Source: Caprella mutica (Eukaryota; Arthropoda; Malacostraca; Amphipoda; Caprellidae). From it: a stretch of DNA of 64,000 bases. The notes beneath the pieces are model-generated. The model was given only the letters and a program-made list of their open reading frames with translations, was not told where the DNA came from and searched no databases. The DNA lies in the NCBI GenBank assembly GCA_947561585.1, contig CANNZV010001028.1, positions 62,001 to 126,000 on the forward strand, written 5' to 3'. The translations under genes were made by a program, and so were the position numbers. Positions within the stretch are counted from its first letter, which is position 1. Each line of letters begins with the position of its first letter. Below, in pieces: positions 10,237 to 64,000 of the stretch.

Positions 10237-10275
10237 GGAATACACATGTTAACCATAACAAAACCACATAACAGT

Positions 10276-20838: not shown

Positions 20839-21076
20839 ATGCTGACAAGTTTCAAACTCTTACTCCCTTTGGGAGTTCTTGGCTGTGTATCCTGTCACTG
20901 GATCTGTGATTCGGCACAGAAACCATGCAATGATGTAACACTGGAAAGCGACTACATCAAAGAAGGTTTGGCAGACTGGTTTCACGAGTCAACAGAAGTC
21001 AAAGGAATGGTCACGGAGAGTATTTGTGCCATGGTTTGTGGCACTCAAAACTGTGCCGCCTTCTTCTCCACTCAAG
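20839..21076 (+). CDS. Lectin-like gene, exon 1
   Basis: Encodes the signal peptide and most of the cysteine-rich module, ending CAAFFSTQ. The donor is CAAG|GTGAGA. It ends in phase 1 (the lone G completes GAT, Asp, with exon 2). The Met at 20839 is the only one giving an N-terminal hydrophobic leader. Confidence 0.85.
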
Positions 21077-39873: not shown

Positions 39874-39991
39874 CTAACACAGAGGGCTGGTGAAGAGGTG
39901 GGAGTAGAACTCAGGCTCAGTCATATCGTAGCGGTAGCGCTGTACCATGTCCTGTACCCTCAACTTGCGCAAGACGTGTGAGGGTTGGTAA
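39874..39991 (-). CDS. RALGAPB: RALGAPB exon n (terminal)
   Basis: After CTTTTCAG it starts with T, completing AGT (Ser) from exon m, and reads [20 protein letters not shown] to [17 protein letters not shown]. The PEFY..LF ending matches the family C-terminus. Confidence 0.92.
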
Positions 39992-42900
39992 CTGAAAAGA
40001 AAAAACATCCTTAAAATACACTGAAAAAAGACTGCAAATGGCACACCTGTGCTACAAGATGGCTACTAACCGTTGCTTTGCTATCACAACATTTAATGTT
40101 GATATATCATTGTGTAGAAACTTTCGAACTTGTTTGTTATTCCCCACATTCCTCCAGAAAAATTAGTCGCTGATTAAATTGGAAATTGTTTGACCCGAGT
40201 AACGATTAGTAGTCATTTTGAAACAAAGGTGGCAGCACCGTGCATTTTCGAAACAGCAATTTCCGATTGTGGTGTATGTTATTGAAGTAGAACTCCTGTA
40301 TAGTGAATGTGTAGAGTTGTATTGTAGTTACATCTTTGGTAGACTGGTATGTGTGAGTCTGGAGTCATACAGAATCATACAGTACAAAAAAAAACAGAAT
40401 TTAACTGTCACTGCAGATTTTTACATTTTGAACCGATAGATAACAGACTAATGAGAAATGATAGAAATAAGGTAAAGGATCTAGCTATCTCACACCTTCA
40501 CTCAAGAAAAAGTAGAACTTAGCAACGAGTAAAGGGTACGAGTGGTAAGTACAGATCCTTTACCTTAGATATATGATGAAGGAAAATTATCAAAATGATA
40601 TTCTTTCCATTCATTAATGTAGCTACTTAGTAAGTTAGTATGGTTACTTTTTAGAAAAATATGGTAAGTGGGGGGTAAATTTTGAATCATCGGACAATTC
40701 CAACCACATAAAAATTATTTAGATTTATTCTTGCGTAGAGTTAGCGGAATTGTCCGCTAACTTGTAACCAACATATAAACATTGCCCCATTGTACGTACC
40801 TATCAGAGTCGAGTCTCCTCCTCCTGGCCATATTAAGAGCTGTCTGTCTGACCAGAACACCCAGCACTCTCCTGCTCACAACCTGACCAGAAACTAGAGG
40901 CCCCGCCACACTCAGTTTGTTACCAGTGGCTTCTATCCGCACACGGAACAGACCATTCTCCAGGGGGTGGAGGAAGATGATGCTGAGCTGGTGGGGATCC
41001 CTGTCCCTCCACCCGACACTCTCCAGCCCCGTGACGCACTCCCCCAGCAGTTGTGACGCGGGGAAAGTCTTGTGGTCACTGTAACTCTCTAGCCACACCA
41101 CCATAACCTTGTGGTCATTGCCTGCCATGGAGGAGCTCTGCCTCCCGAACCTACGCCCGGAGGAGTGGGAGGAGAAAGAGGAGGAGCCTTCACTCGCCTC
41201 CTCATTGCTCCTCTCAGTGTCACTGTGAAGACTGTGCGTGTCCACAGACAAGAGAGAAGGCTTGACTTCAGAAGGTGAAGGTACGATGAAGGAAACTTCA
41301 CTGGAGGCGTCACACCAGTACACTGCCTTCTGAAGGCCATTGTACTCACCCCCTCCATTGTAGGGGCAAGAGGATAGGGGGAACTGCAGTGACTTCACCC
41401 TGCCCCCCCACCCACTGTGGGTGGATAGGCTCACACTCCACCCCACACCAGCTATCAGCTCCAAGAACAGGGGGGAAACCTTGCTAGCGCTTGTCTGGGT
41501 GAGAGAAAAAGATTACAAAAAAAAAGAATTCATTTTCCCGACAGAAATAACAAACTAACTCGTTAACTATTGTAAAAATAACATCCATTCAATTACCAAT
41601 TTAGTGGGGGGTTTAGTACAAACACGCGTTAGATATAGCTACCATATATACGTGTTCTAACAAGTTGAAACGTGTTCTAACAAGTTGAAACGTGTTCTAA
41701 CAAGTTGAAACGTGTTCTAACAAGTTGAAACGTGTTCTAACAAGTTTAAACGTGTTCTAACAAGTTGAAACGTGTTCTAACAAGTTGAAACGTGTTCTAA
41801 CAAGTTGAAACGTGTTCTAACAAGTTGAAACGTGTTCTAACAAGTTAAAACGTGTTCTAACAAGTTAAAACGTGTTCTAACAAGTTGAAACGTGTTGTAA
41901 CAAGTTGAACGTGTTCTAACAAGTTGAACGTGTTCTAACAAGTTGAAACGTGTTCTAACAAGTTGAAACGTGTTGTAACAAGTTGAACGTGTTCTAACAA
42001 GTTGAACGTGTTCTAACAAGTTGAAACGTGTTCTAACAAGTTGAACGTGTTCTAACAAGTTGAAACGTGTTGTAACAAGTTGAAACGTGTTGTAACAAGT
42101 TGAACGTGTTCTAACAAGTTGAACGTGTTCTAACAAGTTGAAACGTGTTCTAACAAGTTGAAAACTTGTTGTAACAAGTTGAACGTGTTCTAACAAGTTG
42201 AAACGTGTTCTAACAAGTTGAAACATGTTCTAACAAGTTGAAACATGTTCTAACAAGTTGAAACATGTTCTAACAAGTTGAAACGTGTTCTGACAAGCTG
42301 AAACGTGTTCTTACCAGATGAAACGTATTAAAACAAGTTGAAACGTGTTATAACAAATTGAAACGTGTTATAACAAGTTGAAACGTGTTATAACAAATTG
42401 AAACGTATTAAAACAAGTTGAAACGTGTTATAACAAATTGAAACGTGTTATAACAAGTTCAAACGTGTTATAACAAGTTCAAATGTGTTCTAACAAGTTC
42501 AAACGTGTTCTGTCTAATTACTACATAGAGTAGCTAGTTGTACCAATACTCACGACATTGTCCAATATCTCGGCAGTGCTGCTTTGTCCCGCTGCCACGT
42601 AGAAGAAGTGCACAGTGTCAGTACTCCTGTTATTAGTGCAGTCCAGACACTCCAACTCCTTGATGAAACTAGAGTGGGAACTGTCTAGAGAGACCAGGTC
42701 AGGCATCTCACCATCCGCACCACACTGAAACAGAACCTCAGTGTTAGGGAGTAGAACCCCAGTGTTAGGGAGTAGAACCCCAGTGTTAGGGAGTAGAACC
42801 CCAGTGTTAGGGAGTAGAACCTCAGTGTTAGGGAGTAGAACCTCAGTGTTAGAGAGTAGAACCTCAGTGTTAGAGAGTAGAACCTCAGTGTTAGGGAGTA

Positions 42901-45900
42901 GAACCTCAGTGTTAGAGAGTAGAACCTCAGTGTTAGAGAGTAGAACCTCAGTGTTAGGGAGTAGAACCTCAGTGTTAGGGAGTAGAACCTCAGTGTTAGG
43001 GAGTAGAACCTCAGTGTTAGGGAGTAGAACCTCAGTGTTAGAGAGTAGAACCTCAGTGTTAGAGAGTAGAACCTCAGTGTTAGAGAGTAGAACCTCAGTG
43101 TTAGAGAGTAGAACCTCAGTGTTAGGGAGAGTAGAACCTCAGTGTTAGGGAGAGTAGAACCTCAGTGTTAGGGAGAGTAGAACCTCAGTGTTAGGGAGAG
43201 TAGAACCTCAGTGTTAGGGAGAGTAGAACCTCAGTGTTAGGGAGAGTAGAACCTCAGTGTTAGGGAGAGTAGAACCTCAGTGTTAGGGAGAGTAGAACCT
43301 CAGTGTTAGGGAGAGTAGAACCTCAGTGTTAGAGAGTAGAACCTCAGTGTTAGAGAGTAGAACCTCAGTGTTAGGGAGGGTAGAACCTCAGTGTTAGGGA
43401 GGGTAGAACCTCAGTGTTAGAGAGTAGAACCTCAGTGTTAGGGAGAGTAGAACCTCAGTGTTAGGGAGAGTAGAACCTCAGTGTTAGGGAGAGTAGAACC
43501 TCAGTGTTAGGGAGAGTAGAACCTCAGTGTTAGGGAGAGTAGAACCTCAGTGTTAGGGAGAGTAGAACCTCAGTGTTAGGGAGAGTAGAACCTCAGTGTT
43601 AGAGAGTAGAACCTCAGTGTTAGGGAGTAGAACCTCAGTGTTAGGGAGAGTAGAACCTCAGTGTTAGGGAGTAGAACCTCAGTGTTAGGGAGAGTAGAAC
43701 CTCAGTGTTAGGGAGTAGAACCTCAGTGTTAGGGAGAGTAGAACCTCAGTGTTAGAGAGTAGAACCTCAGTGTTAGAGAGTAGAACCTCAGTGTTAGGGA
43801 GAGTAGAACCTCAGTGTTAGGGAGTAGAACCTCAGTGTTAGAGAGAGTAGAACCTCAGTGTTAGAGAGAGTAGAACCTCAGTGTTAGAGAGTAGAACCTC
43901 AGTGTTAGGGAGTAGAACCTCAGTGTTAGAGAGTAGAACCTCAGTGTTAGAGAGTAGAACCTCAGTGTTAGAGAGTAGAACCTCAGTGTTAGGGAGAGTA
44001 GAACCTCAGTGTTAGGGAGAGTAGAACCTCAGTGTTAGGGAGAGTAGAACCTCAGTGTTAGAGAGTAGAACCTCAGTGTTAGGGAGAGTAGAACCTCAGT
44101 GTTAGGGAGAGTAGAACCTCAGTGTTAGAGAGTAGAACCTCAGTGTTAGGGAGTAGAACCTCAGTGTTAGGGAGTAGAACCTCAGTGTTAGAGAGTAGAA
44201 CCTCAGTGTTAGAGAGTAGAACCTCAGTGTTAGAGAGTAGAACCTCAGTGTTAGAGAGTAGAACCTCAGTGTTAGAGAGTAGAACCTCAGTGTTAGGGAG
44301 TAGAACCCTAAAATATTATCAACTCTACGGTATGTAGGAATATATTCGTCTTCTGAACGCACATTAAAAGACGGAAAACTCTGGACGCAGGGTAATGCGT
44401 CTTTTTAGTGCGTTGACGAACTCAAAACCAGTCAATTTATCTAATCTACGTGCGAGTGAGCACACGTCCGGTTTGTTGCTGCATCTTTCAATAATAGCTA
44501 ATTGTAGGTAGCTAATTAGTAGAGATGCACCAATACATGCTTATACCAATAACAATTACTTTTTTGATATACTATTTTCATCCGTTTAGGTACAGCGGGA
44601 CTAGTTAGATAACCTACAGTGTAACTTGTTAGGTACAGCTTGACTAGTTAGATATCCTACAGTGTGACTAGTTAGGTACAGTGTGACAAGTTACTGTTAG
44701 GTACAGCGGGACAAGTTGGATAACCTACAGTGTGACTAGTTAGGTACAGTGTGACTGGTACATGTCAATTCTTATGCGTTTGGATTAATTTCCCGTTGCG
44801 TGAAAAAGACGCTCGTGTGCCATGGCCATGCGTCTGCGTTCATTTCACATTATGTCCAAAAGAATTTTGTGTGCGGAGCCCCTTAAAGAGTTTGCCACCT
44901 ATAGTTCTCATTACCCTAATTGGACTGACAAAAATTAAGAGGATTCGTTACACAATGATATTTAGGAAAGCAGTGACTCGAATTATATGATTATTTGTCA
45001 GTTCATAGCTTTTATCACCTGTAAGTTCTCGATGTTTAGCAGTCCCAAGTGCGACAGGAGGAGCCTTGCTGTTTGGAACTCCTGACACACTGGAGGAGCT
45101 ATGCACTCAGTGTCTCCTTCAGAAGGAGCCGAGGACTTCTTCTCCGCCTGCAGAGGAAAATAGTTAGTAACAAAGTAGGGGAAGTGATGAGTTATCGTAC
45201 GGTTACACATTTTCGATTAGCTATATAGGAAAAAGTATATATTCAATTTTATTTTAATTGATATCCAAATAAGGGGTAGAAACATATTAGTATATAGCAG
45301 CTTTTATCTGATCGAAAATATGAAACCGTTCAATAACTCAGAACAGTCTACTCTCTTTATCCATATTCCATATTGTAGCTATAATCTATATATACATTAA
45401 TTCATTTACAATTTCAGTTATTAATGTATTGTGAAAATAAAATTAATAACAAAGTGATTTCAAAGAAATGTTAAAAACTAAAATTTTGGGGGTTGCAAGA
45501 CAAAACAATAGAAAATTATCGAAATGGCGAATTAAAATTCTCCAAGATTAAGTAAATCGTCAGCTATGCAGATGTTAATGAGCCTCATTTTTATCCCCGT
45601 ACGAATAACATAGGAATATTTCGCTGATAAGCTGAGTTGGAACGAAAATCACTTTACTTTACTGGTCTATTGGCCACATCTGGAAATGTTTTCCATTACA
45701 CTCCAAGTGTAAATATATTTGTTCAAAGTTCCCTTCTTTATAACTCCAAGTTCTTTCTCACCTCAGTCACCAGTTCTTTCTCACCTCAGTCACCAGTTCT
45801 TTCTCACCTCAGTCACCAGTTCTTTCTCACCTCAGTCACCAGTTCTTTCTCACCTCAGTCACCAGTTCTTTCTCACTTCAGTCACCAGTTCTTTCTCACC

Positions 45901-48900
45901 TCAGTCACCAGTTCTTTCTCACCTCAGTCACCAGTTCTTTCTCACCTCAGTCACCAGTTCTTTCTCACCTCAGTCACCAGTTCTTTCTCACCTCAGTCAC
46001 CAGTTCTTTCTCACCTCAGTCACCAGTTCTTTCTCACCTCAGTCACCAGTTCTTTCTCACCTCAGTCACCAGTTCTTTCTCACCTCAGTCACCAGTTCTT
46101 TCTCACCTCAGTCACCAGTTCTTTCTCACCTCAGTCACCAGTTCTTTCTCACCTCAGTCACCAGTTCTTTCTCACCTCAGTCACCAGTTCTTTCTCACCT
46201 CAGTCACCAGTTCTTTCTCACCTCAGTCACCAGTTCTTTCTCACCTCAGTCACCAGTTCTTTCTCACCTCAGTCACCAGTTCTTTCTCACCTCAGTCACC
46301 AGTTCTTTCTCACCTCAGTCACCAGTTCTTTCTCACCTCAGTCACCAGTTCTTTCTCACCTCAGTCACCAGTTCTTTCTCACCTCAGTCACCAGTTCTTT
46401 CTCACCTCAGTCACCAGTTCTTTCTCACCTCAGTCACCAGTTCTTTCTCACCTCAGTCACCAGTTCTTTCTCACCTCAGTCACCAGTTCTTTCTCACCTC
46501 AGTCACCAGTTCTTTCTCACCTCAGTCACCAGTTCTTTCTCACCTCAGTCACCAGTTCTTTCTCACTTCAGTCACCAGTTCTTTCTCACTTCAGTCACCA
46601 GTTCTTTCTCACCTCAGTCACCAGTTCTTTCTCACCTCAGTCACCAGTTCTTTCTCACCTCAGTCACCAGTTCTTTCTCACCTCAGTCACCAGTTCTTTC
46701 TCACCTCAGTCACCAGTTCTTTCTCACCTCAGTCACCAGTTCTTTCTCACCTCAGTCACCAGTTCTTTCTCACCTCAGTCACCAGTTCTTTCTCACCTCA
46801 GTCACCAGTTCTTTCTCACCTCAGTCACCAGTTCTTTCTCACCTCAGTCACCAGTTCTTTCTCACCTCAGTCACCAGTTCTTTCTCACCTCAGTCACCAG
46901 TTCTTTCTCACCTCAGTCACCAGTTCTTTCTCACCTCAGTCACCAGTTCTTTCTCACCTCAGTCACCAGTTCTTTCTTACCTCAGTCACCAGTTCTTTCT
47001 CACTTTAGTCACCAGTTCTTTCTCACTTCAGTCACCAGTTCTTTCTTACCTCAGTCACCAGTTCTTTCTCACTTCAGTCAGCAGTTCTTTCTTACCTCAG
47101 TCACCAGTTCTTTCTTACCTCAGTCACCAGTTCTTTCTTACCTCAGTCACCAGTTCTTTCTCACCTCAGTCACCAGTTCTTTCTCACCTCACTCACCAGT
47201 TCTTTCTCACCTCAGTCACCAGTTCTTCCTCACCTCAGTCACCAGTTCTTTCTCACCTCAGTCACCAGTTCTTTCTCACCTCAGTCACCAGTTCTTCCTC
47301 ACCTCAGTCACCAGTTCTTTCTTACCTCAGTCACCAGTTCTTTCTCACTTCAGTCAGCAGTTCTTTCTCACCTCAGTCACCAGTTCTTTCTTACCTCAGT
47401 CACCAGTTCTTTCTTACCTCAGTCACCAGTTCTTTCTCACCTCAGTCACCAGTTCTTTCTCACCTCAGTCACCAGTTCTTTCTCACCTCAGTCACCAGTT
47501 CTTCCTCACCTCAGTCACCAGTTCTTTCTCACCTCAGTCACCAGTTCTTTCTCACCTCAGTCACCAGTTCTTTCTCACCTCAGTCACCAGTTCTTCCTCA
47601 CCTCAGTCACCAGTTCTTCCTCACCTCAGTCACCAGTTCTTCCTCACCTCAGTCACCAGTTCTTTCTCACCTCAGTCACCAGTTCTTCCGCACCTCAGTC
47701 ACCAGTTCTTTCTCACCTCAGTCACCAGTTCTTTCTCACCTCAGTCACCAGTTCTTTCTCACCTCAATCACCAGTTCTTTCTTACCTCAATCACCAGTTC
47801 TTTCTTACCTCAGTCACCAGTTCTTTCTCACCTCAGTCACCAGTTCTTTCTCACCTCAGTTACCAGTTCTTTCTCACCTCAGTCAGCAGTACTTTCTCAC
47901 CTCAGTCACCAGTGCTTTCTTACCTCAGTCACCAGTTCTTCCTCACCTCAGTCACCAGTTCTTCCTCACCTCAGTCACCAGTTCTTTCTCACCTCAGTCA
48001 CCAGTTCTTTCTCACCTCAGTCACCAGTTCTTTCTCACCTCAGTCACCAGTTCTTTCTTACCTCAGTCACCAGTTCTTTCTCACCTCAGTCACCAGTTCT
48101 TTCTCACCTCAGTCACCAGTTCTTTCTCACCTCAGTCACCAGTTCTTTCTCACCTCAGTCACCAGTTCTTTCTTACCTCAGTCACCAGTTCTTTCTCACC
48201 TCAGTCACCAGTTCTTTCTCACCTCAGTCACCAGTTCTTTCTCACCTCAGTCACCAGTTCTTCCTAACCTCAGTCACCAGTTCTTTCTTACCTCAGTCAC
48301 CAGTTCTTTCTCACCTCAGTCACCAGTTCTTTCTCACCTCTGTCACCAGTTCTTTCTCACCTAGGTCACCAGTTCTTTCTTACCTCAGTCACCAGTTCTT
48401 TCTTACCTCAGTCACCAGTTCTTTCTCCCCTCAGTCACCAGTTCTTTCTCACCTCAGTCACCAGTTCTTTCTCACCTCAGTCACCAGTTCTTTCTCACCT
48501 CAGTCACCAGTTCTTTCTTACCTCAGTCACCAGTTCTTTCTTACCTCAGTCACCAGTTCTTTCTCACTTTAGTCACCAGTTCTTTCTCACTTTAGTCACC
48601 AGTTCTTTCTCACTTCAGTCACCAGTTCTTTCTTACCTCAGTCACCAGTTCTTTCTCACCTCAGTCACCAGTTCTTTCTTACCTCAGTCACCAGTTCTTT
48701 CTTACCTCAGTCACCAGTTCTTTCTCACCTCAGTCACCAGTTCTTCCTCACCTCAGTCACCAGTTCTTTCTCACCTCAGTCACCAGTTCTTCCTCACCTC
48801 AGTCACCAGTTCTTCCTCATCTCAGTCACCAGTTCTTTCTCACCTCAGTCACCAGTTCTTCCTCACCTCAGTCACCAGTTCTTCCTCACCTCAGTCACCA

Positions 48901-54900: not shown

Positions 54901-57900
54901 CACCTAGTTCTATCAGTTCTCACCTAGTTCTATCACCTCGAGCAGTATAAGTAGCGTCTCCTGGTCATGCAGTAGGGAGGGGTGACACAATAGCCACACA
55001 CTGCAGGTTTGGAATGCAGCCACTATGGTGGAATGCAGGTCCTGGGGAGAAGAAAGGTAAAGAACTAAATTAGTTAGCTAGCTATGGCGCATGACCTAAC
55101 ATTTCTAGAGTGGAAAAATGGGGGTTGTTCAATATTTTCACAGTGATAAGCAAAAAAAAAAATCTTATAGGGTAGTGCAAGGAGATGTTTTTCTTACAGC
55201 TGGCACTTGAAATATGGTGCCTATGTTTATGATGGAAATATGAAGTATTTCTTGTCAATTGTATATCTAGCGGTAGGTAGGTACAACTGAATATTTATCC
55301 ATTTCTATAAACCTTAAATTCTCAGGATGTTTCTCTAGAGTGTGTCCAATTAATTGATGCCTTTTAGTTAATGTTACTAAAAGTTGCATGAGTGCATAGG
55401 TACCTTAGAGTGAGCTGGAGGGGGTCTGCTGCACTGATACACTATGTAGTCACACAGCCACTTCACAGCCCTCTTACACTCCAACCAATCTGAAAAAGAG
55501 GGAAATGTTAGACAAAAAGTGAGGGGAAATAATGAGAACAACTTAACATTAGAGGTTTACAAAGGACTAGTAACACTAGGGGTATACAAAGGACTAGTAA
55601 CACTAGGGGTTACAAAGGACTAGTAACACTAGGGGTTTAGAAAGGACTAGTAACACTAGAGGTTTACCAAGGACTAGTAGCTAACACTAGTGGTTTACCA
55701 AGAACTAGGTTCACTAGGTGTTACCTTGATGTGGGGTGTGCAGTCTAGCTAGTGCCCCTAGTAGTTCCAATCCAGCTAGTGACACATTGACATCAGTTCT
55801 CCAAGAGAGAATGAGGTGGTGACACACTAGGTAGATTGCTCTCACCACCAGTGTGCTGCCACAGTCTGCAACAGAAACCAGGGGGTGGTATGTATAGCTA
55901 TAGCTAGAGATAGATATAGCACTTGGCTGATGGGGTAAGCAATGAATTATAGGTAGGTTTCACATTTTCGGTCATGTAACGAAAAAAAAACGATATAATA
56001 ATTATTATTTATTTAGTAACCATAATACCTGCAGTATATATCTATGACACCATGATAACAATATCCTTTGGTATCTATGACACCATGATAACAATATCCA
56101 TTGGTATCTATGACACCATGATAACAATATCCTTTGGTATCTATGACACCATGATAACAATATCCTTTGGTATCTATGACACCATGATAACAATATCCTT
56201 TGGTATCTATGACACCATGATAACAATATCCTTTGGTATCTATGACACCATGATAACAATATCCATTGGTATCTATGACACCATGATAACAATATCCTTT
56301 GGTATCTATGATGCTTGGTATACAGGGTGGGGCGTAAGTTTGGAAGCAATTTTTCAAACATTAATATAATTCTTAAAAATAAGTTCCTAAGTAGGTGATA
56401 GGGTTTGAACTATAGTAGAGACACTACATTATGACGTGGCAGTGTTATTTTTTACAAAAATTTAGTCAATTCAAAAATGTCAGACAAAAGAGAAGCCATT
56501 ATTGCTCTACACCGTGCCGGGAAGTCAGATTCCGTCATTTCAAAGACTCTCTCAATAGCGAGATCGACTGTTTGGAAGTGTGTGAAGCGTTTTAATGAGA
56601 GAGGAGACTTGACTGATCGTCCAAGAAGTGGTAGACCACGCTCACAACGCACCAAACAACTGATAAAATGTGCCCGAGAGAAGATCAGGAGGAACCCGAA
56701 AAGGTCACGATTGTTAGCCAAAACAGCTAATGTGAGTCCCAGAACAATGAGAAGAGTTGTCAAAGAAGACCTAAAGATGTCCTCTTTCACCCTCCAAAAG
56801 AGACAGACTCTGTCAGAAGCTGTAAAGAAAAAGAGATTGGAGAGAAACAAAGCACTTCTGAGAGAATTGAAGTCTGGCACGGCTGGTGAAATTGTTTGGT
56901 CTGACGAAAAAATTTTCACAGTGGAAATGGCTCACAACCGGAGGAATGACAGAATAATTGGTAAAAGTGCAAAAGACATCCCATATAACCAAAAAACTGT
57001 CCACAGAACCATGAAACCTGCTTCAGTAATGGTCTGGGCCGCCGTTTCAGAAACTTGGAGATCTCCTTTAATTTTTGTGGAACAAGGCGCCAAAATCAAT
57101 GCTAAATGTTATATTGAGAATATTTTGACGCCAATGTTGGAGTCAGCTAAGGATCACTTCGGTAATGACACTCTATGGACATTTCAGCAAGACGGCGCGA
57201 CTTCACATAATGCAAATGTCACTCAAATCTGGTCCCATGACCATCTTCCACGGTTTTGGTCCAAAGAAATGTGGCCTCCCTGCTCCCCAGATGTTAATCC
57301 TATGGACTTTTCGGTATGGTCCATTCTTGAATCAAAGGCCTGTGGTAAATTCCATCGCATTGTGGATGATTTAAAGCGTTCGCTCCAGAGATCTTGGAAG
57401 GGAATTTCACAAGAACAGTTGCGTGCCGCAGTAGGAGGAGTTCGGAGGAGATTTGAGGCTGTTATTAAAAACAAGGGGGGACATTTTGAATAAATTTATG
57501 ATTTTTGAATTCTTAAAACACTTATGTAATAATACATAACTGTAAATTATTAAATATATTTTTCGTTGGATTATAATATGCACTTTCATTTGCTTCCAAA
57601 CTTACGCCCCACCCTGTACAAGGATATCGATAATATAAAAATAAAATAATTATCATTATATAGTTTTTTCTTATATGACCGATGTGAAACCAACCGATAA
57701 TTCACAACTGACCTTAGTTTAGTTAGTTATACTTCACTATAAATCTATAATATATATAACTGTAAACACTATATCACAGGGGAATATAAAGCATGCACAC
57801 ACAAACAATAGAAACTCTCAGCAATGCAGTTAAGAATGCAAACGTGAAAGCATTGAATGCAACTTACATTGGAAGTTACTCAGAGCAATCGAGAGATGGG

Positions 57901-60900
57901 TGGTGTTTGTAGGTAGCTAACAAGTTTAAGAAAATAAAGCAATGAAGCCAATAGTGATGACGAAAAATAAAATGAAATATATAAATTACCCTATTTCTAA
58001 CTAGTCATTTTTTTAGTTAACTTAGTAGACCTCAGTAGATCTGAGGTTAGTAGTAGATAGTTAGTAGTAGATCTAGTAACATGCTAGCTAGTAAAAAATG
58101 GGAAATTCTCGTTTAATTTGTACTTTCTATATTTTGTAAACATTAATAATTTCACAAGCGATTGTGACTGTCTTAACTAAAATAGTTTTCAAACTAATTA
58201 TCAAACGGGCAACAAAATGAATAATGTGCGAACGTGTGAGAAATGTTTTCTCATCATATCATAGAAAAGTTGTGTGTGATTGTGGTGTTAAATGTTCTAT
58301 AGGGTAATTTACGAATTATTGGTCAGTTCCACATCATCGGTCATAGAAGAAACATCGATAGCTATGATAATTATTATAGCTACCGTTTTTTCTTCTCTGA
58401 CCGATGATGTGGAACTGACCCATCATTCGTAACTCAGCCTATTTTAAAGTGTCACACTGGGCAGGGAGGAGTTGCTCCTCATTGAAGAGGAGCGGCTTGA
58501 CTTACCATGAGGAGATGTGGATAGTAAGCCAAGAGGAGTGGAGGGAGGAGCTGTGGCTTGTGTGGAGGGAGGAGGAGGAGTTGGCTCCATACTCTCCTCC
58601 GTGAGGCTTGACAGATCTCCTCCATACATTGAAGAGAGGGAGTCACCACCTGGAGGAGTGGAGGGAGAAGGGGGAGAAAGGAGGAAGATGGAGAAAAGAG
58701 GAAGATGGAGAAAAGAGGAAGATGGAGAAAAGAGGAAAATGGAGAAAAGAGGAAAATGGAGAAAAGAGGAAGATGGAAAAAGGAGGAAGATGGAAAAAGG
58801 AGGAAGATGGAAAAAGGAGGAAGATGGAAAAAGGAGGAAGATGGAAAAAGGAGGAAGATGGAAAAAGGAGGAAGATGGAAAAAGGAGGAAGATGGAAAAA
58901 GGAGGAAGATGGAAAAAGGAGGAAGATGGAGAAAGGAGGAAGATGGAGAAAGGAGGAAGATGGAAAAAAGAGGAATATGGAGAAAGGAGGAATATGGAGA
59001 AAGGAGGAAGATGGAGAAAGGAGGAAGATGGAGAAAGGAGGAATATGGAGAAAGGAGGAAGATGGAGAAAGGAGAAAGGAGGAAGATGGAGAAAGGATAA
59101 AGGAGGGAGGAAAGAAAATAAGAAGAAAAAGAGGTACAATTCAAAGGGTGGAAGCACAATGCAGAAAAGAAAAATGAACAAAATTAGTGGCAAATAAAAT
59201 AAAAATATAAAGCTAGCTATTGAATAATGAAATAAATACTGAATAATAGTATGAGAATAAATAGCAAGCTAGTAAGTAGTTCACAACACAAACTGATATT
59301 GCTTTAGTGCATACATACTATTTACAGTTCCATGACAAGGGGACCAAAGAATATGAAAATTAACACCTCATCCCCTCAGATTGGCATGAAAGTTGGTTCA
59401 AAGGATTCTTGTGCCTAAAAAAACTCTAATTTGAGAATCTCAGCTCTCTAGCTCTTGTAGGTCAAAAGTTATGAACTTGAGAACTTTTGAAAAAAAGGGG
59501 CAAAATGGCTTGACATCACCATTTTTGAAAGGTCATCACTTTCTTATTATTAGACCTAGAACAAAAAGTTTAGCATGTTTTTTGTTCAGAATAAGCTTGG
59601 CAATCTTTCTAGGTGTATAAAATTTCATTCTAATTTTTTGAACGAAAAAGGACACTTACCCTCTTTGGCTTTGACCTTTACCCTCAAAGGCCCCACTTGA
59701 CAAAAAAATTATTAGCACAAAAAATGTAGATTGACTACTTAGCGATAGGTTGGAAAGTTAATATTTACTACTATTTATAGGGATTAGGGATGTATTTGAA
59801 CTCAAACAGGTGCTTTAGACAAAAAAAAAATATATGAGTGCAAGAAAAAATCATAATTTTGAAGTTAAATTGAAGTAAAGTTTCACAAATTACGAATTTA
59901 CTAATATTAATAATTACCAATATTAAATTTACTACTATTTATCAATAATAAATAAGAGTAGTTATTAATAAATAAGAATAACTATCTATAAATAATAGTA
60001 AATATTAAAAAACAATAGAAACTATTAGTTAATAGTAGTAAATTTGCCCTTTTTCGTTCAAAAAATTAGAATGAAATTTTATAAACCTAGAAAGATTGCC
60101 AAGCTTATTCTGAACAAAAAACATCATAAACTTTTTGTTCTAGGTCTAATAATAAGAAAGTGATGACCTTTCAAAAATGGTGATGTCAAGCCATTTTGCC
60201 CCTTTTTTTCAAAAGTTCTCAAGTTCATAACTATTGACCTATAAGAGCTAGAGAGCTGAGATTCTCAAATTAGAGTTTTTTGGGCACAAGAACCCTTAGT
60301 AACAACTTTCATACAAAACTGAGGGGGTGAGGTGTCAACCCTTGGTCCACTTGTCCTGGAATGCCCTGGAGATAAAGACAATTAAGCAAACTAATGGATA
60401 AATAAAAAATAAAGGAATGACTATGATGTAGCTACTACAAGAGAAAAGAATGATTCTTAATTTGAAGAACAACAGTTTTCTTAATTTTTTTCATAGTCAA
60501 ATCTTACAAATTTATCTTTGTTGAGTAATTATAAAATATTTCAAGCATTTACAGCAGACCACTAAAAAAAGTTAGCGCCGTTCCAACTCATCTCATCAGC
60601 GAATTATTCCTATGTTATTCGTACGGGGATAAAATTGAGGTTCATTAACATTTATATAGCTGACGATTTACCTAATATTGGAGAATTTTAATTCGATATT
60701 TGGCTACCTAATATCTAACCGGTTTCATTGCTGTGAAGGTTATTAAATTAAAAACAGTTACGAGTTACTTAAGAAGTTTTTTATGACCATTTTCACGTCA
60801 CTTACGGTGAATGGCTCAGTGCCTGTCGCTTAGAATGGTTGTGTGGTGCTTTTGCTCGTCTCTTTGAAGCAAAGCGCCACACAATCTCTCAAAACAACTA

Positions 60901-62939
60901 GGTACTGAAGTCGTTATTGAATAACTCATAACTTTTTCATTTCGAAACTAATTTCAATAAACTTTAAAGCAATTAATGGGGTTAGATATTAGGTATCAAA
61001 TATTGAACTCAAATTCTCCAAGATTGAGTAAATCGTCAGTTATACAGATATTAATGAACCTCATTTTTCTGATGAGATAAGTTGGAAATGCGCTCACTTC
61101 TTTTACTGGTCTATTAGTGAAGATTCTTTTTTTGGAAATTAGTAAACTGCGTAAAAAATTGAACACGCTTTACAGATAGCTACAGGCAAACAAGCTGAAC
61201 CAGACAAAACATCAAAAGGTTCTTTACTTCACAGAAAGAAATGAAATTGGGCATACAAGATCTCACATAATCTTCTATGGCCCCACCATGCGTGTTGACT
61301 TACCCAAAGGAGTGGTGGAGTCTCTACTGTCAGAGGCAGCGTAGTTGTGCTGGGACACAGAGTCCATATTCTCACACACACTGGCATCTTGCACACAGAA
61401 CATTAGCCCGCCTGAGAAAGAGAATAGAGGTAGAGGGGAATAGAGGTAGAGGGGAATTACACATAGAGGTAAAGAAAGAAGTTCTTAAATTAATTATACT
61501 AGGGGATTTAACGTCTGTTTCAGAACCAAAGGCTACATCGATGGATGGAAATAGAATAATAACCTAGCAACATGTGGATAACTTACCTAGTAACATGTGG
61601 ATAACTGACCTAGTAACATGTGGATAACTTACCTGGCAACATGTGGATAACTTACCTAGTAGCTAACATGTGGATAACTTACCTAGTAACATGTGGATAA
61701 CTTACCTAGTAATATGTGGATAACTGACCTAGTAACATGTGGATAACTTACCTAGCAACATGTGGATAACTTACCTAGTAACATGTGGATAACTGACCTA
61801 GTAACATGTGGATAACTTACCTAGTAGCTAACATGTGGATAACTGACCTAGCAACATGTGGATAACTTACCTAGTAACATGTGGATAACTGACCTAGTAA
61901 CATGTGGATAACTGACCTAGTAACATGTGGATAACTGACCTAGCAACATGTGGATAACTGACCTAGCAACATGTGGATAACTGACCTAGCAACATGTGGA
62001 TAACTTACCTAGTAACATGTGGATAACTGACCTAGTAACATGTGGATAACTTACCTAGCAACATGTGGATAACTTACCTAGTAGCTAACATGTGGATAAC
62101 TTACCTAGCAACATGTGGATAACTTACCTAGTAGCTAACATGTGGATAACTTACCTAGTAACATGTGGATAACTTACCTAGCAACATGTGGATAACTTAC
62201 CTAGTAACATGTGGATAACTGACCTAGTAACATGTGGATAACTTACCTAGTAGCTAACATGTGGATAACTGACCTAGCAACATGTGGATAACTTACCTAG
62301 TAACATGTGGATAACTGACCTAGTAACATGTGGATAACTGACCTAGTAACATGTGGATAACTGACCTAGCAACATGTGGATAACTGACCTAGCAACATGT
62401 GGATAACTTACCTAGTAACATGTGGATAACTGACCTAGTAACATGTGGATAACTTACCTAGCAACATGTGGATAACTTACCTAGTAGCTAACATGTGGAT
62501 AACTTACCTAGTAACATGTGGATAACTTACCTAGTAACATGTGGATAACTTACCTAGCAACATGTGGATAACTTACCTAGTAACATGTGGATAACTTACC
62601 TACCAACATGTGGATAACTTACCTAGCAACATGTGGATAACTTACCTAGTAACATGTGGATAACTTACCTAGTAACATGTGGATAACTTACCTAGTAACA
62701 TGTGGATAACTTACCTAGCAACATGTGGATAACTTACCTAGTAACATGTGGATAACTTACCTAGCAACATGTGGATAACTTACCTAGTAACATGTGGATA
62801 ACTGACCTAGTAACATGTGGATAGTCATAGGTTGTGTCTCAGTCTGCAAAGCAGTGGACAGTAGATTTAGCAGCTGAGGTCTCAGGAGACTGAGTCTGTG
62901 TCTCTCACCAGCCACTCCAACCTCCTTGATCACCAGGTC
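39874..62939 (-). CDS. RALGAPB: Ral GTPase-activating protein subunit beta, C-terminal 834 residues (14 exons)
   Basis: Fourteen exons on the minus strand total 2505 bases (834 residues plus TAG); all 13 junctions keep phase. Recognised family segments in order: [208 protein letters not shown]. These follow the order of vertebrate RALGAPB, whose C-terminal part is Rap-GAP-like. The beta subunit pairs with a catalytic alpha subunit that inactivates Ral GTPases. Roughly the N-terminal 40-45% lies beyond 64000. Introns are unusually rich in minisatellites and transposons. Confidence 0.93.
39992..40799 (-). other. RALGAPB intron m-n
   Basis: Holds two small fold-backs: GGTAAAGGATC at 40471 mirrored by GATCCTTTACC at 40554-40564, and CGGACAATTCC at 40691-40701 mirrored at 40746-40756. 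No minisatellite. Confidence 0.7.
40670..40771. mobile_element. 'Cold-spot' MITE family, short member F
   Basis: Ends ATCATCGGACAATTCC and, reverse-complemented, AAGTTAGCGGACAATTCC, resembling member B (ATTATCGGACAGTTCC). Only about 100 bp long. Confidence 0.5.
40800..41494 (-). CDS. RALGAPB: RALGAPB exon m
   Basis: 695 bases, phase 0 in and phase 2 out. Starts [20 protein letters not shown] and ends RRRRLDSD(S). It contains the bulk of the C-terminal Rap-GAP-like region: [24 protein letters not shown], a variable Ser-rich loop (about [20 protein letters not shown]), [31 protein letters not shown] and [13 protein letters not shown]. Donor GATAG|GTACGT. The acceptor lies 3' of a CT-rich tract. 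Confidence 0.93.
41651..42511. repeat. 20-bp minisatellite in RALGAPB intron l-m
   Basis: About 43 units of AACAAGTTGAAACGTGTTCT (plus strand), with 19-bp units lacking one A between 41890 and 42190. A GTGTTATAACAAATTG variant takes over near 42330-42470. It fills most of the intron but starts 40 bases from the exon l donor and does not contain that donor. Confidence 0.96.
42554..42724 (-). CDS. RALGAPB: RALGAPB exon l
   Basis: 57 codons, phase 0 at both ends. Reads [20 protein letters not shown] to [21 protein letters not shown]. Acceptor TGTTTCAG; donor GTC|GTGAGT. The array at 42732-44308 ends 7 bases before this acceptor. Confidence 0.93.
42732..44308. repeat. 21/23-bp minisatellite abutting the exon l acceptor
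   Basis: About 72 units. Plus strand AGAACCTCAGTGTTAGGGAG(T) with 21-bp units and 23-bp units carrying an extra GA, intermixed. On the coding strand each unit contains CCCTAAC, a good branch-point match, followed by ACTGAGGTTCT. The last unit runs into the acceptor as CTAACACTGAGGTTCTG then TTTCAG, so the branch-point region appears to be what was repeated. Confidence 0.93.
44590..44758. repeat. Degenerate repeat in intron k-l
   Basis: Phrases GTTAGGTACAG, CGGGACTAGTTAGATA and CCTACAGTGTGACTAGTTAG recur three to five times in irregular order. It looks like an old or partly deleted array. Confidence 0.7.
45019..45147 (-). CDS. RALGAPB: RALGAPB exon k
   Basis: 43 codons, phase 0 at both ends: [15 protein letters not shown] then [20 protein letters not shown]. 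Acceptor CCTCTGCAG, donor TTACAG|GTGATA. Confidence 0.93.
45189..45340. mobile_element. 'Cold-spot' MITE family, member C
   Basis: Left end GAGTTATCGTACGGTTACAC, then ATTTTCGAT. Right end reverse-complemented GAGTTATTGAACGGTTTCAT, then ATTTTCGAT. Interior AT-rich. Located in RALGAPB intron j-k. Confidence 0.7.
45500..45665 (-). repeat. Half-copy of the 60.6-kb fold-back element
   Basis: GATTAAGTAAATCGTCAGC, ATGTTAATGAGCCTCATTTT and CCCCGTACGAATAACATAGG match the left arm of 60577-61102 in reverse orientation. Only one arm is present, next to the start of the 23-bp array. Confidence 0.7.
45750..50269 (-). repeat. 23-bp splice-donor minisatellite of exon j (about 196 units)
   Basis: On the coding strand the unit is GAACTGGTGACTGAG followed by GTGAGAAA. 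Exon j ends GAAGAACTGGTGACTGAG|GTGAGAAA, so each unit equals the last 15 exon bases plus the first 8 intron bases. The array starts at the exon edge and fills about 4.5 kb of the intron. Variants: CTTACC (GGTAAG donors), TTCCTC, CACTTC, CTCGG near the exon. The plus-strand 876-codon frame is a 69-bp period artefact. Confidence 0.95.
50270..50487 (-). CDS. RALGAPB: RALGAPB exon j
   Basis: Starts with GT (completing Gly) and reads [40 protein letters not shown] to [10 protein letters not shown]. Phase 2 in, phase 0 out. The first donor, GAG|GTGAGA, gives the join to AEKKSS of exon k. Its last 15 bases recur in the following array. The acceptor follows a C-rich tract of 12. Confidence 0.93.
50835..51019 (-). 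CDS. RALGAPB: RALGAPB exon i
   Basis: Reads (R)[20 protein letters not shown], then [20 protein letters not shown] and [13 protein letters not shown](G). Acceptor CTCTTTCAG; donor CCTG|GTAAGT. Joins exon h through AGG (Arg) and exon j through GGT (Gly). Confidence 0.93.
51296..51429 (-). CDS. RALGAPB: RALGAPB exon h
   Basis: 44 codons plus 2 bases: [20 protein letters not shown] then [23 protein letters not shown](R). Acceptor ATGGGTAG; donor TTCAG|GTGAGA. The exon i junction rebuilds KHFRYYVS, matching the family. Confidence 0.88.
51640..52900 (-). pseudogene. LINE relic: RT C-terminal part and RNase H
   Basis: Minus strand in RALGAPB intron g-h, same orientation as the gene. From 5' to 3': [18 protein letters not shown] and [11 protein letters not shown] (RT core with the DD pair, about 52765-52885), IFTDGCKT and FTAELMALL (RNase H, about 52300-52470, with stops), then a 197-codon frame (51644-52237) with [17 protein letters not shown] (RNase H end), [15 protein letters not shown] and a C-x2-C-x7-H-x4-C motif (CEDC...H...C). 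Stops and shifts make it dead. RNase H-bearing LINEs of the I/Jockey-related group are the likely parent. Its 5' part is missing. Confidence 0.8.
53001..53402. mobile_element. 402-bp MITE, AAGGyCCGTTTACA ends
   Basis: AAGGTCCGTTTACAG at the left and, reverse-complemented, AAGGCCCGTTTACACGC at the right, with TA on both sides (52999-53000, 53403-53404). CGATAAAT and GCGATTTATCG words repeat in both arms. It lies in RALGAPB intron g-h between the LINE relic and exon g. Confidence 0.75.
53466..53590 (-). CDS. RALGAPB: RALGAPB exon g
   Basis: Starts with GT completing Gly, then [41 protein letters not shown]. Acceptor TTTGCAAG; donor ACAG|GTCTGT, a weak match. 'ELGISGSKS' across the exon f junction is a family signature. 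Confidence 0.9.
53760..54923 (-). repeat. 20-21-bp splice-donor minisatellite of exon f (about 55 units)
   Basis: Exon f ends GTGATAGAACTAG|GTGAGAAC. Coding-strand units repeat GAACTAGGTGAG followed by AACTGATA (20 bp, nearest the exon, to about 54730), AACGTGATG (21 bp, about 54070-54730) and CAGGTGGTA (21 bp, farthest, about 53760-54066). A unit near 54850 keeps GAGGTGATAGAACTAG, the exact exon end. Thus every unit carries the exon's donor. Confidence 0.94.
54924..55041 (-). CDS. RALGAPB: RALGAPB exon f
   Basis: [20 protein letters not shown] then [19 protein letters not shown](G). Acceptor TCTCCCCAG; donor CTAG|GTGAGA. Phase 0 in, phase 1 out. Its final bases are copied in the downstream array. 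Confidence 0.93.
55404..55489 (-). CDS. RALGAPB: RALGAPB exon e
   Basis: (D)[20 protein letters not shown] then RPPPAHSK. Acceptor CTTTTTCAG; donor TAAG|GTACCT. Phase 2 in, phase 0 out. YIVYQCSRP is highly characteristic of the family. Confidence 0.93.
55550..55724 (-). repeat. 27-bp donor-anchored short array after exon d
   Basis: Exon d ends CATCAAG|GTAACACCTAG. The following coding-strand units begin GGTAACACCTAGTG, GGTAAACCACTAGTG, GGTAAACCTCTAGTG, then TCTAAACCCC, TGTAACCCC and so on, each ending CTAGTCCTT or similar. The two or three units nearest the exon keep CTTG|GTAAA; more distant ones have lost the GT. About six units. Confidence 0.75.
55725..55865 (-). CDS. RALGAPB: RALGAPB exon d
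   Basis: (D)[20 protein letters not shown] then [26 protein letters not shown]. Acceptor CTGTTGCAG; donor CAAG|GTAACA. Phase 2 in, phase 1 out. Confidence 0.93.
56042..56312 (+). repeat. 33-bp minisatellite inside MITE member D
   Basis: About eight units of CATGATAACAATATCCTTTG plus GTATCTATGACAC; two units have ATCCATTGG. The word GTATC...GATAC recurs in the loop of members A and B, so the array probably grew from the MITE's own centre. Being 11 codons long it leaves open frames on both strands. Confidence 0.93.
56323..57616 (+). mobile_element. Complete mariner (DD37D) element, 1294 bp
   Basis: Terminal inverted repeats of about 27 bp, perfect by eye: CAGGGTGGGGCGTAAGTTTG at 56323 and its complement ending at 57616. 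TA flanks both ends (56321-56322, 57617-57618). One uninterrupted transposase frame inside. Identical ends and an intact frame indicate a recent, possibly still active copy. It sits in the minisatellite of MITE member D, plus strand, opposite to RALGAPB. Confidence 0.95.
56477..57493 (+). CDS. Mariner-family transposase, DD37D
   Basis: 338 residues, within the normal range for mariner-like transposases. N-terminal HTH region ([20 protein letters not shown], then [12 protein letters not shown]) and a GRPR motif at about 52-55. Catalytic Asp 143 (WSDEKIF), Asp 239 (QQDGATSH) and Asp 277 (SPDVNPMDF). There are 37 residues between the second and third Asp, which is the DD37D (maT) class. It would cut and join the element's inverted repeats at TA. 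The ATG at 56477 is 155 bp inside the element; no earlier in-frame ATG gives a longer conserved start. All key residues are present, so it may be functional. Confidence 0.93.
   Translation: MSDKREAIIALHRAGKSDSVISKTLSIARSTVWKCVKRFNERGDLTDRPRSGRPRSQRTKQLIKCAREKIRRNPKRSRLLAKTANVSPRTMRRVVKEDLKMSSFTLQKRQTLSEAVKKKRLERNKALLRELKSGTAGEIVWSDEKIFTVEMAHNRRNDRIIGKSAKDIPYNQKTVHRTMKPASVMVWAAVSETWRSPLIFVEQGAKINAKCYIENILTPMLESAKDHFGNDTLWTFQQDGATSHNANVTQIWSHDHLPRFWSKEMWPPCSPDVNPMDFSVWSILESKACGKFHRIVDDLKRSLQRSWKGISQEQLRAAVGGVRRRFEAVIKNKGGHFE
57720..58307. other. RALGAPB intron c-d, remainder
   Basis: AT-rich, with short TAGTAGAT/CTAGTAA repeats near 58020-58095. No gene. Confidence 0.5.
58308..58434. mobile_element. 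'Cold-spot' MITE family, member E
   Basis: Nearly pure stem-loop: ACGAATTATTGGTCAGTTCC then ACATCATCGGTCA, mirrored by TGACCGATGATGTGGAACTG then ACCCATCATTCGT. The shortest and cleanest member, arms of about 50 bp. Confidence 0.75.
58506..58649 (-). CDS. RALGAPB: RALGAPB exon c
   Basis: (G)[20 protein letters not shown] then [27 protein letters not shown]. Low-complexity linker corresponding to the variable Ser/Thr/Pro region before the LLIRSIHL-type segment in relatives. Acceptor CTCCTCCAG; donor CATG|GTAAGT. Phase 2 in, phase 1 out. Chosen over longer low-complexity frames on both strands because phase and neighbours fit. Confidence 0.85.
58665..59100. repeat. 17-bp polypyrimidine minisatellite before the exon c acceptor
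   Basis: Plus strand GGAGGAAGATGGAAAAA with AGAGGAAGATGGAGAAA variants, about 25 units. On the coding strand it is CT-rich (TTTTTCCATCTTCCTCC) and runs to within about 20 bases of the 3' splice site, so it looks like a repeated polypyrimidine tract. The 130-250-codon frames on both strands are artefacts. Confidence 0.93.
59328..60361. mobile_element. Large fold-back element, about 325-bp arms
   Basis: TTCCATGACAAGGGGACCAA at the left is mirrored at the right (reverse complement ATTCCAGGACAAGTGGACCA). The arms stay similar over about 325 bp (for example GGCAAAATGGCTTGACATCA at about 59500 and its complement at 60186-60205). A 390-bp A/T-rich centre separates them. In RALGAPB intron b-c. No coding capacity and no certain target duplication. 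Confidence 0.85.
60577..61102. mobile_element. Fold-back element, about 150-bp arms
   Basis: Left TTCCAACTCATCTCATCAGC, right reverse-complemented TTCCAACTTATCTCATCAG. Arms include ATTAACATTTATATAGCTGA and CGATTTACCTAATATTGGAG with their complements on the right. The centre has GAATGGCTCAGTGCC and AAAGCGCCACACAA-like words. A one-arm relative is at 45500-45665. Confidence 0.75.
61304..61411 (-). CDS. RALGAPB: RALGAPB exon b
   Basis: (G)[19 protein letters not shown] then [15 protein letters not shown](G). Acceptor TTTCTCAG; donor TTGG|GTAAGT. Phase 2 in, phase 1 out. Join to exon a gives [15 protein letters not shown], consistent with relatives. Confidence 0.88.
61562..62806 (-). repeat. 23-bp splice-donor minisatellite of exon a (over 50 units)
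   Basis: Exon a ends TATCCACATGTTACTAG|GTCAGT. Coding-strand units repeat TATCCACATGTTACTAG plus GTAAGT or GTCAGT: the last 17 exon bases plus 6 intron bases. Some units read GTTGCTAG; some 27-bp units read GTTAGCTACTAG. Blocks recur (61690-61990 and 62120-62440 nearly repeat). Most units have the consensus GTAAGT, while the donor joined to exon a is GTCAGT. Confidence 0.95.
62807..62939 (-). CDS. RALGAPB: RALGAPB exon a (most 5' recognised in window)
   Basis: [20 protein letters not shown] then [24 protein letters not shown](G). Acceptor TGTTTTCAG; donor CTAG|GTCAGT. Phase 0 in, phase 1 out. 'ALQTET' matches the family at this point. Confidence 0.92.
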
Positions 62940-63370
62940 CTGAAAACAAACACAATCTTAGCTAGCTATAATATCCGCATCTGAATAACAATATTAATGT
63001 ATATTTTAGTAAGCTACAGTGAATTAAACATCACTAAAAAATGGTCTCTGTTTTCTATGTCTATAGCTATACGATAATAACTTTGAGAAGTGCCTCGCAA
63101 TTATTTCAGCTCTAATAAAAGAGGGGCTTGCCTGTGTAACTGTAATACCACAGAGATGCAATATTGTTACCTACCTGTCTCCACAGTAAAAAATAATTCT
63201 CCACATTACCAAAAATTGAGATGATCAGTAGCTAGCTATTGAGTGAAATAATTAATAGAAAAGAAAAAATTCCATGTACAACAAGTCATATATACGAGTA
63301 AGTAGCTAAATTATATTATTCTAAATCACAAAGAAAAGTAATATTACAACTAATGATCTGAGCATCCCTC
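62940..63370 (-). other. RALGAPB intron upstream of exon a
   Basis: AT-rich, no exon recognised. It continues into the 17-bp array; the next 5' exon must lie beyond 64000. Confidence 0.6.
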
Positions 63371-64000
63371 TATGCCATGTCCCACTCCATGCCATGTCCC
63401 ACTCCATGCCATGTCCCACTCCATGCCATGTCCCACTCCATGCCATGTCCCACTCCATGCCATGTCCCACTCCATGCCATGTCCCACTCCATGCCATGTC
63501 CCACTCTATGCCATGTCCCACTCTATGCCATGTCCCAATCTATGCCATGTCCCACTCCATGCCATGTCCCACTCCATGCCATGTCCCACTCCATGCCATG
63601 TCACACTCCATGCCATGTCCCACTCCATGCCATGTCCCACTCCATGCCATGTCCCACTCCATGCCATGTCCCACTCCATGCCATGTCCCACTCCATGCCA
63701 TGTCCCACTCCATGCCATGTCCCACTCCATGCCATGTCCCACTCCATGCCATGTCCCACTCCATGCCATGTCCCACTCCATGCCATGTCCCACTCCATGC
63801 CATGTCCCACTCCATGCCATGTCCCACTCCATGCCATGTCCCACTCCATGCCATGTCCCACTCCATGCCATGTCCCACTCCATGCCATGTCCCACTCCAT
63901 GCCATGTCCCACTCCATGCCATGTCCCACTCCATGCCATGTCCCACTCCATGCCATGTCCCACTCTATGCCATGTCCCACTCTATGCCATGTCCCACTCT
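63371..64000. repeat. 17-bp minisatellite running off the window
   Basis: About 37 units of CCATGCCATGTCCCACT, highly uniform, with CTATGCC variants near 63505-63545 and at the window end. The coding strand reads AGTGGGACATGGCATGG. Three units make 17 codons, so three frames stay open (GHGMEWDMAWSGTW); these are artefacts. Whether it abuts a splice site cannot be seen here. Confidence 0.95.

What the first reader, a model, noticed from the sequence alone, without database searches (positions are those of the whole stretch)
39874..62939. A gene-wide system of splice-site-derived minisatellites in RALGAPB
Of 13 introns between recognised exons, four carry arrays starting at the 5' splice site with exon-derived units (after exons a, d, f, j) and two carry arrays ending just before the 3' splice site (before exons c, l). 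Random minisatellite placement would not give this phase lock to exon borders. Tandem duplication of AGGT-containing exon ends is a proposed route for intron gain; here it seems to happen repeatedly at existing borders and to expand. I know of no named system of this kind, but I cannot search.
Basis: partly seen in the sequence, partly recalled or inferred. Interest (0 to 1): 0.93.

Follow-up and report, generated by a model that had tools for sequence, protein, structure and literature searches.

The report
Minisatellites grown from splice donors
In a RALGAPB gene of an amphipod-like crustacean, the end of an exon and its splice-donor signal have been copied head-to-tail into the following intron at five of 26 borders, up to about 197 times, and similar arrays turn up in a few other genes of this genome.

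Summary
The core observation is real. The gene is RALGAPB (minus strand; closest protein found Hyalella azteca, 67%). Three window arrays are head-to-tail copies of exon tail plus donor: a (23 bp x54), f (20/21 bp x57), j (23 bp x197). The other three cited arrays (d, c, l) lie near borders but are not exon-derived. The gene's N-terminal half, outside the window, adds two: 5 of 26 donors against 0 of 26 acceptors.

Elsewhere in the 903 Mb assembly 2 of 155 donor tests (a TBC and a myosin gene) show it strictly, against 0 of 107 acceptor tests (P 0.35); a myosin IQ exon with 51 copies (only 9 exon nt) lay outside the tests. One array has 3 versus 4 copies on two contigs that look like haplotypes.

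Best explanation: ordinary minisatellite birth across a border, in a minisatellite-rich genome, filtered by splicing. Donor-side copies are silent if the first donor is used; acceptor-side copies would enter the mRNA. Human IFI6 is a single-locus precedent. New variant of a known kind. RALGAPB is an outlier, no RNA was available, and no genome-wide rate is established.

The parts
62807..62939 (-). RALGAPB exon a; its last 17 nt seed array a
61562..62823 (-). Array a: 54 x 23 bp, unit TATCCACATGTTACTAG|GTAAGT (exon tail + donor), in intron a-b
   Evidence: GT intact in 54 of 54 units
54924..55041 (-). RALGAPB exon f; its last 13 nt seed array f
53760..54936 (-). Array f: 57 x 20/21 bp, unit GTGATAGAACTAG|GTGAGAAC, in intron f-g
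   Evidence: donor G(+1) kept in 46 of 57 units
50270..50487 (-). RALGAPB exon j; its last 15-21 nt seed array j
45749..50290 (-). Array j: 197-198 x 23 bp, unit GAACTGGTGACTGAG|GTGAGAAA, in intron j-k
   Evidence: G(+1) kept in 194 of 197 and T(+2) in 196 of 197 units
55544..55722 (-). Array d: 27 bp, begins 2 nt inside intron d-e; donor-adjacent, not exon-derived
58673..59078 (-). Array before exon c: 24 x 17 bp, pyrimidine-rich on the gene strand, ends 23 nt before the acceptor; not exon-derived
42732..44307 (-). Array before exon l: 72 x 21 bp, unit contains CTAAC (branch-point-like, recalled consensus), ends 7 nt before the acceptor; intron-derived
41650..42511 (-). Array in intron l-m: 20 bp x 43, 42 nt from the donor; not exon-derived
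63368..64000 (-). Array in the intron before exon a (17 bp; continues to C1028:126288); starts 12 nt after the E13 donor; not exon-derived
39874..62939 (-). C-terminal 14 exons of RALGAPB; exons E1-E13 lie outside the window at C1028:126301-141195

Best explanation
These are ordinary minisatellites whose founding duplication happened to span an exon-donor border. Step 1 (shown by sequence): a 20-60 bp stretch of exon tail plus the first intron bases was duplicated in tandem. Step 2 (inferred; one copy-number difference supports it): slippage or unequal exchange multiplied the unit inside the intron. Step 3 (inferred): selection keeps only donor-side events, because use of the first, exon-proximal donor still gives the normal mRNA, while a duplicated acceptor would put an extra exon head into the mRNA. 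The arrays thus lengthen introns from their 5' end and leave rows of unused consensus donors. They need not have a function.
For: Exon tails recur strongly in their own intron only: own scores 16-24 at E3, E12, a, f, j, while any tail or head scores at most 13 in the other introns. Exon-derived cases: 7 of 181 donor tests, 0 of 133 acceptor tests, P 0.020 (tests; P). The frame is intact with exon-proximal donors, and all 346 downstream donor-like sites found by a loose pattern in arrays a, f, j and E12 give a premature stop. Arrays of period >=10 fill 33.7% of the window, so raw material is abundant. Three versus four donor copies at a TBC locus on contigs C2624 and C1037.
Against: Outside RALGAPB the strict donor excess is not significant (2 of 155 versus 0 of 107, P 0.35). 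RALGAPB is an outlier (5 of 26 versus 2 of 155, P 0.0007) that plain randomness does not explain. Donor-adjacent arrays without exon sequence are not predicted by the filter. A genome-wide count of AGGTAAGT pairs at 16-bp spacing is only 1.7 times its reversed control (570 versus 331). The first donor of exon a is GTCAGT (predicted U1 energy -6.4), weaker than the GTAAGT of 35 of 53 units, so its exclusive use is not obvious. No RNA evidence.
Confidence: 0.62

Rival explanations
1. The donor is a mutational hot spot: something about donors (for example co-transcriptional R-loops, or the repeated AG in AGGTRAG) makes tandem duplication start there far more often than elsewhere.
For: Seven of 15 arrays in the gene start at or within 25 nt of a donor (expected 1.6). 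Outside the gene 6 of 155 donor tests versus 0 of 107 acceptor tests have an array (TRF score >=100, read by eye from the TRF lists) within 25 nt (P 0.04), four of them without evident exon sequence (L028, L054, L075, L186), which the splicing filter alone does not predict.
Against: The genome-wide donor-pair count is only modestly above control. No donor-side array in 33 kinase windows, though only 27 of these have a donor-like site near the match end.
Confidence: 0.2
2. The arrays are functional: rows of U1-binding sites act as a platform or decoy that tunes splicing, blocks premature polyadenylation or makes unproductive transcripts.
For: Donor motifs are well kept in two arrays: 54 of 54 GT in a, 194 (G) and 196 (T) of 197 in j. 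Predicted U1 pairing equals or exceeds the authentic donor at 52 of 87 (a), 35 of 43 (f), 135 of 191 (j) and 7 of 25 (E12) donor-like sites, and use of any of these 346 sites gives a premature stop.
Against: In f the donor G(+1) is changed in 11 of 57 units, more than 15 of the 20 other columns; distal E12 units carry GTTAGA instead of GTGAGA; E7 units carry GA instead of GT. No sign of selection on the donors, but the units are too alike for a real test.
Confidence: 0.06
3. Intron gain: the arrays are the introns, created by duplication of AGGT-containing exon (Rogers model), not expansions at old borders.
For: Unit = exon segment with AG|GT; published cases include a multiply duplicated 24 bp AGGT segment in fission yeast (passage in PMC4974935).
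Against: After arrays a, f, j and E12 the intron runs on for 104-601 nt of sequence outside the array with its own acceptor, and exon heads do not recur in their own introns (0 of 26). Whether the intron positions are old was not tested.
Confidence: 0.06
4. Assembly artefact or dispersed repeat (introner-like element) placed at exon ends.
For: Arrays are long and the assembly is a draft of 7200 contigs.
Against: Exact searches for units a and j hit only RALGAPB loci among 217 fetched loci; units contain the gene's own exon tail; several variant units are interspersed within arrays. A genome-wide search for unit j was asked five times and not answered; unit a was not tried.
Confidence: 0.06

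Closest known systems
Minisatellite with multiple splice donors in human IFI6 (6-16/G1P3), Turri, Cuin & Porter 1995
   Same: Tandem repeat at an exon-intron border whose units act as splice donors (title in reference lists; PMC4526556 passage: isoforms use two downstream repeat units as donor sites).
   Different: IFI6 is one locus and its downstream donors are reported as used; here there are five borders in one gene plus three cases in other genes, up to ~197 copies, and use of the tested array donors would break the frame. The 1995 paper is not held, so unit length and copy number of IFI6 were not compared.
[quoted passage not shown] ATP2A1, fission yeast SPOG_01682/SOCG_00815, potato RdRp)
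   Same: Tandem duplication of a segment with AGGT or across an exon-intron border (PMC4974935, passages).
   Different: Here the duplication sits at the 5' end of a longer intron that keeps a non-array 3' part and acceptor; no new acceptor is made.
Ordinary intronic minisatellites / VNTRs
   Same: Head-to-tail 20-60 bp units with variant copies and one copy-number difference between likely haplotypes.
   Different: The founding segment spans the exon-donor border; donor-side bias.
Introner elements (recalled)
   Same: Repetitive DNA carrying splice signals inside introns (recalled description).
   Different: Units here derive from the adjacent exon; no sign of a dispersed family in the loci held.

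Membership tests
Donor-bearing minisatellite (IFI6 type) | Tandem units span the exon-intron border and carry a donor | tested here: met
   a, f, j, E12; also L019, L065, L086
Donor-bearing minisatellite (IFI6 type) | Repeat donors are used in mRNA | not testable with these tools
   No RNA data; all 346 donor-like sites tested give a premature stop
Intron gain by tandem duplication | Duplicated exonic segment containing AGGT | tested here: met
Intron gain by tandem duplication | New intron bounded on both sides by copies of the exon segment | tested here: not met
   Exon heads do not recur in their own intron, 0 of 26 (best own score 11, within noise); 104-601 nt non-array tail after a, f, j, E12
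Intron gain by tandem duplication | Intron position absent from relatives | not tested
   No relative's gene DNA was available
Minisatellite / VNTR | Head-to-tail units of about 10-100 bp | tested here: met
Minisatellite / VNTR | Copy number differs between alleles | tested here: inconclusive
   3 versus 4 donor copies at one TBC locus on C2624 and C1037, taken to be haplotypes from their near-identical flanks; no second RALGAPB contig was found
Introner element | Same element at many loci | tested here: inconclusive
   Units a and j hit only RALGAPB loci among 217 fetched; genome-wide search unanswered

The most novel reading that the evidence does not exclude
In this crustacean genome introns grow from their donor end: border-spanning duplications repeatedly turn the 5' splice site into a minisatellite, at roughly one to a few per cent of donors, so that thousands of exons may be followed by rows of consensus donors from which the spliceosome must pick the first.
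Probability: 0.3. Interest if true: 0.78.

Novelty: new variant of a known kind. Interest (0 to 1): 0.6.

Why it matters
If the inferred splicing holds, these genes are natural experiments in 5' splice-site choice: exons followed by 54 to ~197 near-identical units with consensus-like donors, where every downstream site tested would ruin the protein. That makes the question of how one donor is picked among identical neighbours directly testable in vivo. It also points to a simple route of intron lengthening that is visible at several stages, from two to four copies (E3, TBC) to ~197 (j), and offers an explanation from splicing logic for an asymmetry between the two ends of introns.

Tried and rejected
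Rejected: exon origin of array d (score 5, noise) and of c and l. Rejected: a myosin hit of score 36, which proved to be an HMM match running about 40 nt into the intron; the true exon tail scores 7. It stays in the denominator as a negative, and L028 counts as donor-adjacent. Left out: with 700 nt of flank (minus-strand loci not yet turned) some myosin exons matched sequence about 580-660 nt away (L025 14; L039, L040, L046, L047 18-36), on both tail and head sides; I took the pairs near 590 nt for alternative-exon duplicates (not checked) and limited to 400 nt. Treated as noise: kinase window L122 (13) and UCH window L183 (12), not examined further; scores of 11 at E7, L066, L109, L114, L182, L189 (donor side) and at E9, j and L133 (acceptor side). 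The test window differed between sets: last 40 nt against the whole intron, last 45 nt against 400 nt, 60 nt against 371 nt, a sliding 40 nt over the first 110-130 nt, 60 nt against the rest for acceptors. Unusable: a test for selection on donors from per-column variation, as units are too alike. Array polarity is not consistent: j is most homogeneous at its distal end, a is not. Species not identified: Hyalella azteca was the best hit in two searches (best 120 listed each). The 1995 IFI6 paper is not held. Not every window holds a donor: a loose donor-like site lies near the match end in 42 of 54 myosin/TBC, 17 of 20 and 10 of 13 kinase and 16 of 20 UCH windows; all windows were kept in the denominators. 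Rows dropped: of 105 myosin matches I gave those 59 that lay in fetched loci; it dropped the nine C1840 rows (apparent duplicate of C2332) and ends with under 200 nt of flank. For some searches I chose matches by eye, mostly leaving out duplicate contigs, matches ending at the domain end and poor matches; the near-identical UCH pair C3167/C3631 was kept on both sides. Acceptor windows were fetched for the 20 TBC, 20 of 34 myosin and 20 UCH matches, none for kinases.

Full report
What the gene is. The spliced minus-strand exons of the window give an open frame of 834 residues that matches human Ral GTPase-activating protein subunit beta, PDB 9qwp chain B, with E 2.9e-156. The best protein hit in two searches is Hyalella azteca RALGAPB at 67%; isopod and krill and mantis-shrimp and decapod proteins follow, so the host is probably an amphipod. 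The rest of the gene lies on the same contig (C1028:126301-141195). The full model has 27 exons and a 1476-residue frame followed by a stop.

Checking the observation. Laid out by unit, arrays a, f and j start inside the exon and repeat exon tail plus donor: TATCCACATGTTACTAG|GTMAGT, GTGATAGAACTAG|GTGAGAAC and GAACTGGTGACTGAG|GTGAGAAA. In a matrix of 13 exon tails and 11 arrays the three matched pairs score 17, 13 and 18; mismatched pairs reach 9, and the maximum for these three arrays over 1932 exon-interior 25-mers is 7 to 8. Array d (score 5) and the arrays before c and l carry no exon sequence; l repeats an intronic stretch with CTAAC, c a pyrimidine-rich stretch.

Out of sample. Exon E12 ends in 24 nt that recur in 28 bp units (about 26 copies). 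Exon E3 is followed by a short degenerate duplication of its own tail (score 21). E7 has a 21 bp array of donor-region units in which GT has become GA; its exon tail scores 11 and is not counted. Over the whole gene exon tails recur in their own intron at 5 of 26 donors (scores 16-24) and exon heads at 0 of 26 acceptors (best 11); scores against other introns reach 13 (P 0.025). Of 15 arrays in the gene 7 lie within 25 nt of a donor or overlap it and 2 near an acceptor; random placement expects 1.6 of each.

Other genes. Exon matches to myosin head, TBC, protein kinase and UCH domains in the same 903 Mb assembly gave further tests: 48 myosin donors and 47 acceptors within loci (59 matches given of 105 listed), 54 donor windows for TBC (20) and myosin (34), 33 for kinases, 20 for UCH, and 60 acceptor windows. 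Strict exon-derived cases: L065 (TBC, 51 bp unit) and L086 (myosin, 60 bp unit with over 40 exon nt plus GTAGGGTCCTA, filling most of a roughly 1 kb intron). A third, L019 (myosin IQ exon, 20 bp x51), was seen outside the test list; it shares only 9 exon nt and would not have passed the strict score. Totals: donors 7 of 181, acceptors 0 of 133, P 0.020; without RALGAPB 2 of 155 versus 0 of 107, P 0.35. Arrays (TRF score >=100) within 25 nt of a border, exon-derived or not, counted by eye from the TRF lists: 13 of 181 donors versus 2 of 133 acceptors, P 0.016; without RALGAPB 6 of 155 versus 0 of 107, P 0.04. The windows were partly chosen by eye and the tests are post hoc, so the P values are a guide only. 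RALGAPB is an outlier (5 of 26 versus 2 of 155, P 0.0007; its unseen half alone 2 of 13, P 0.03).

Which donor is used. The exon-proximal donors give a protein colinear with Hyalella at a and f. At j the alignment has a four-residue gap right at the border (VTEA), so that donor may have moved. All 346 downstream donor-like sites tested in arrays a, f, j and E12 (loose pattern; the 87 in a include sites that are not unit donors) give a premature stop. Predicted U1 pairing equals or exceeds that of the authentic donor at 52 of 87, 35 of 43, 135 of 191 and 7 of 25 of them. First-donor use is therefore an inference from the need for a protein, not an observation.

Mechanism. The simplest account is a tandem duplication across the border, growth by slippage or unequal exchange, and a filter by splicing. 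The genome supplies many minisatellites (33.7% of the window in arrays of period 10 or more). Copies downstream of the first donor leave the mRNA unchanged if the first donor is used; copies upstream of an acceptor would be read as exon. This predicts exon tails at donors and no exon heads at acceptors, as seen. It does not by itself predict donor-adjacent arrays without exon sequence (d, E7, E13, L028, L054, L075, L186), so a mutational preference for donors remains a live rival. At the TBC locus two contigs with near-identical flanks carry 3 and 4 donor copies, which suggests that such arrays still change.

What is known. Human IFI6 carries a minisatellite that provides multiple splice donors (title in reference lists; PMC4526556 passage). 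Intron gain by tandem duplication of AGGT segments is a published model with examples (PMC4974935 passages). Nine searches listed nothing that, by title and start of abstract, describes recurrent donor-derived arrays in one gene or genome. Four of these lists were capped (20 of 49, 12 of 44, 6 of 19 and 8 of 33 papers shown), I read listings and passages only, and the library is open-access only.

Limits. No RNA, no relative's genomic DNA, no genome-wide annotated scan; the genome-wide search for unit j did not complete. A genome-wide count of AGGTAAGT pairs at 16-bp spacing is 570 against 331 for the reversed control, a modest excess; the places listed there come in runs from a few arrays.

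Noticed in passing
56311-57625 (+): Tc1/mariner-like element with an open 352-residue transposase frame (56435-57493; HTH and DDE_3 Pfam matches, DDE_3 below its cut-off) and matching inverted ends seen by eye, beside a 33 bp array in intron c-d.
   Followed up: partly
7-658 and 10267-11186; 2011-3593 and 12574-14154; 3672-3838 and 14232-14436: A composite of a 22 bp array, a 61 bp array and an inverted piece of the same 61 bp unit occurs twice about 10 kb apart, like a duplicated foldback element (inversion judged by eye).
   Followed up: no
34600-38876: 24 bp x 177 array just downstream of the gene; no match to the 13 exon tails of the window.
   Followed up: partly
50270-50300: RALGAPB here has four extra residues (VTEA) against Hyalella exactly at the exon j/k border; the donor may have slid within the repeat.
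   Followed up: partly
20839-21300: A possible exon end CAAG|GTGAG near 21075 is followed within about 15-35 nt by a degenerate 35 bp array in what looks like a second gene's intron; no Pfam match for the frame.
   Followed up: no
26423-26719: Weak F5/8 type C-like exon (Pfam E 0.00085, below cut-off).
   Followed up: no
L028 (donor C1789:62674); L186 (C3009:31040-31490); L075 (C493:70258-70708); L054 (C1734:299199-299649): Arrays that begin about 3 to 22 nt after a donor without evident exon sequence in other genes.
   Followed up: partly
L208 and L209: Two near-identical UCH loci with a 24 bp array ending about 42 and 56 nt before an acceptor.
   Followed up: no
L172, L175, L176, L177: Some kinase hits lie on G+C-rich stretches without a clear donor that look prokaryotic, so the assembly may hold symbiont or contaminant contigs (by eye).
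   Followed up: no
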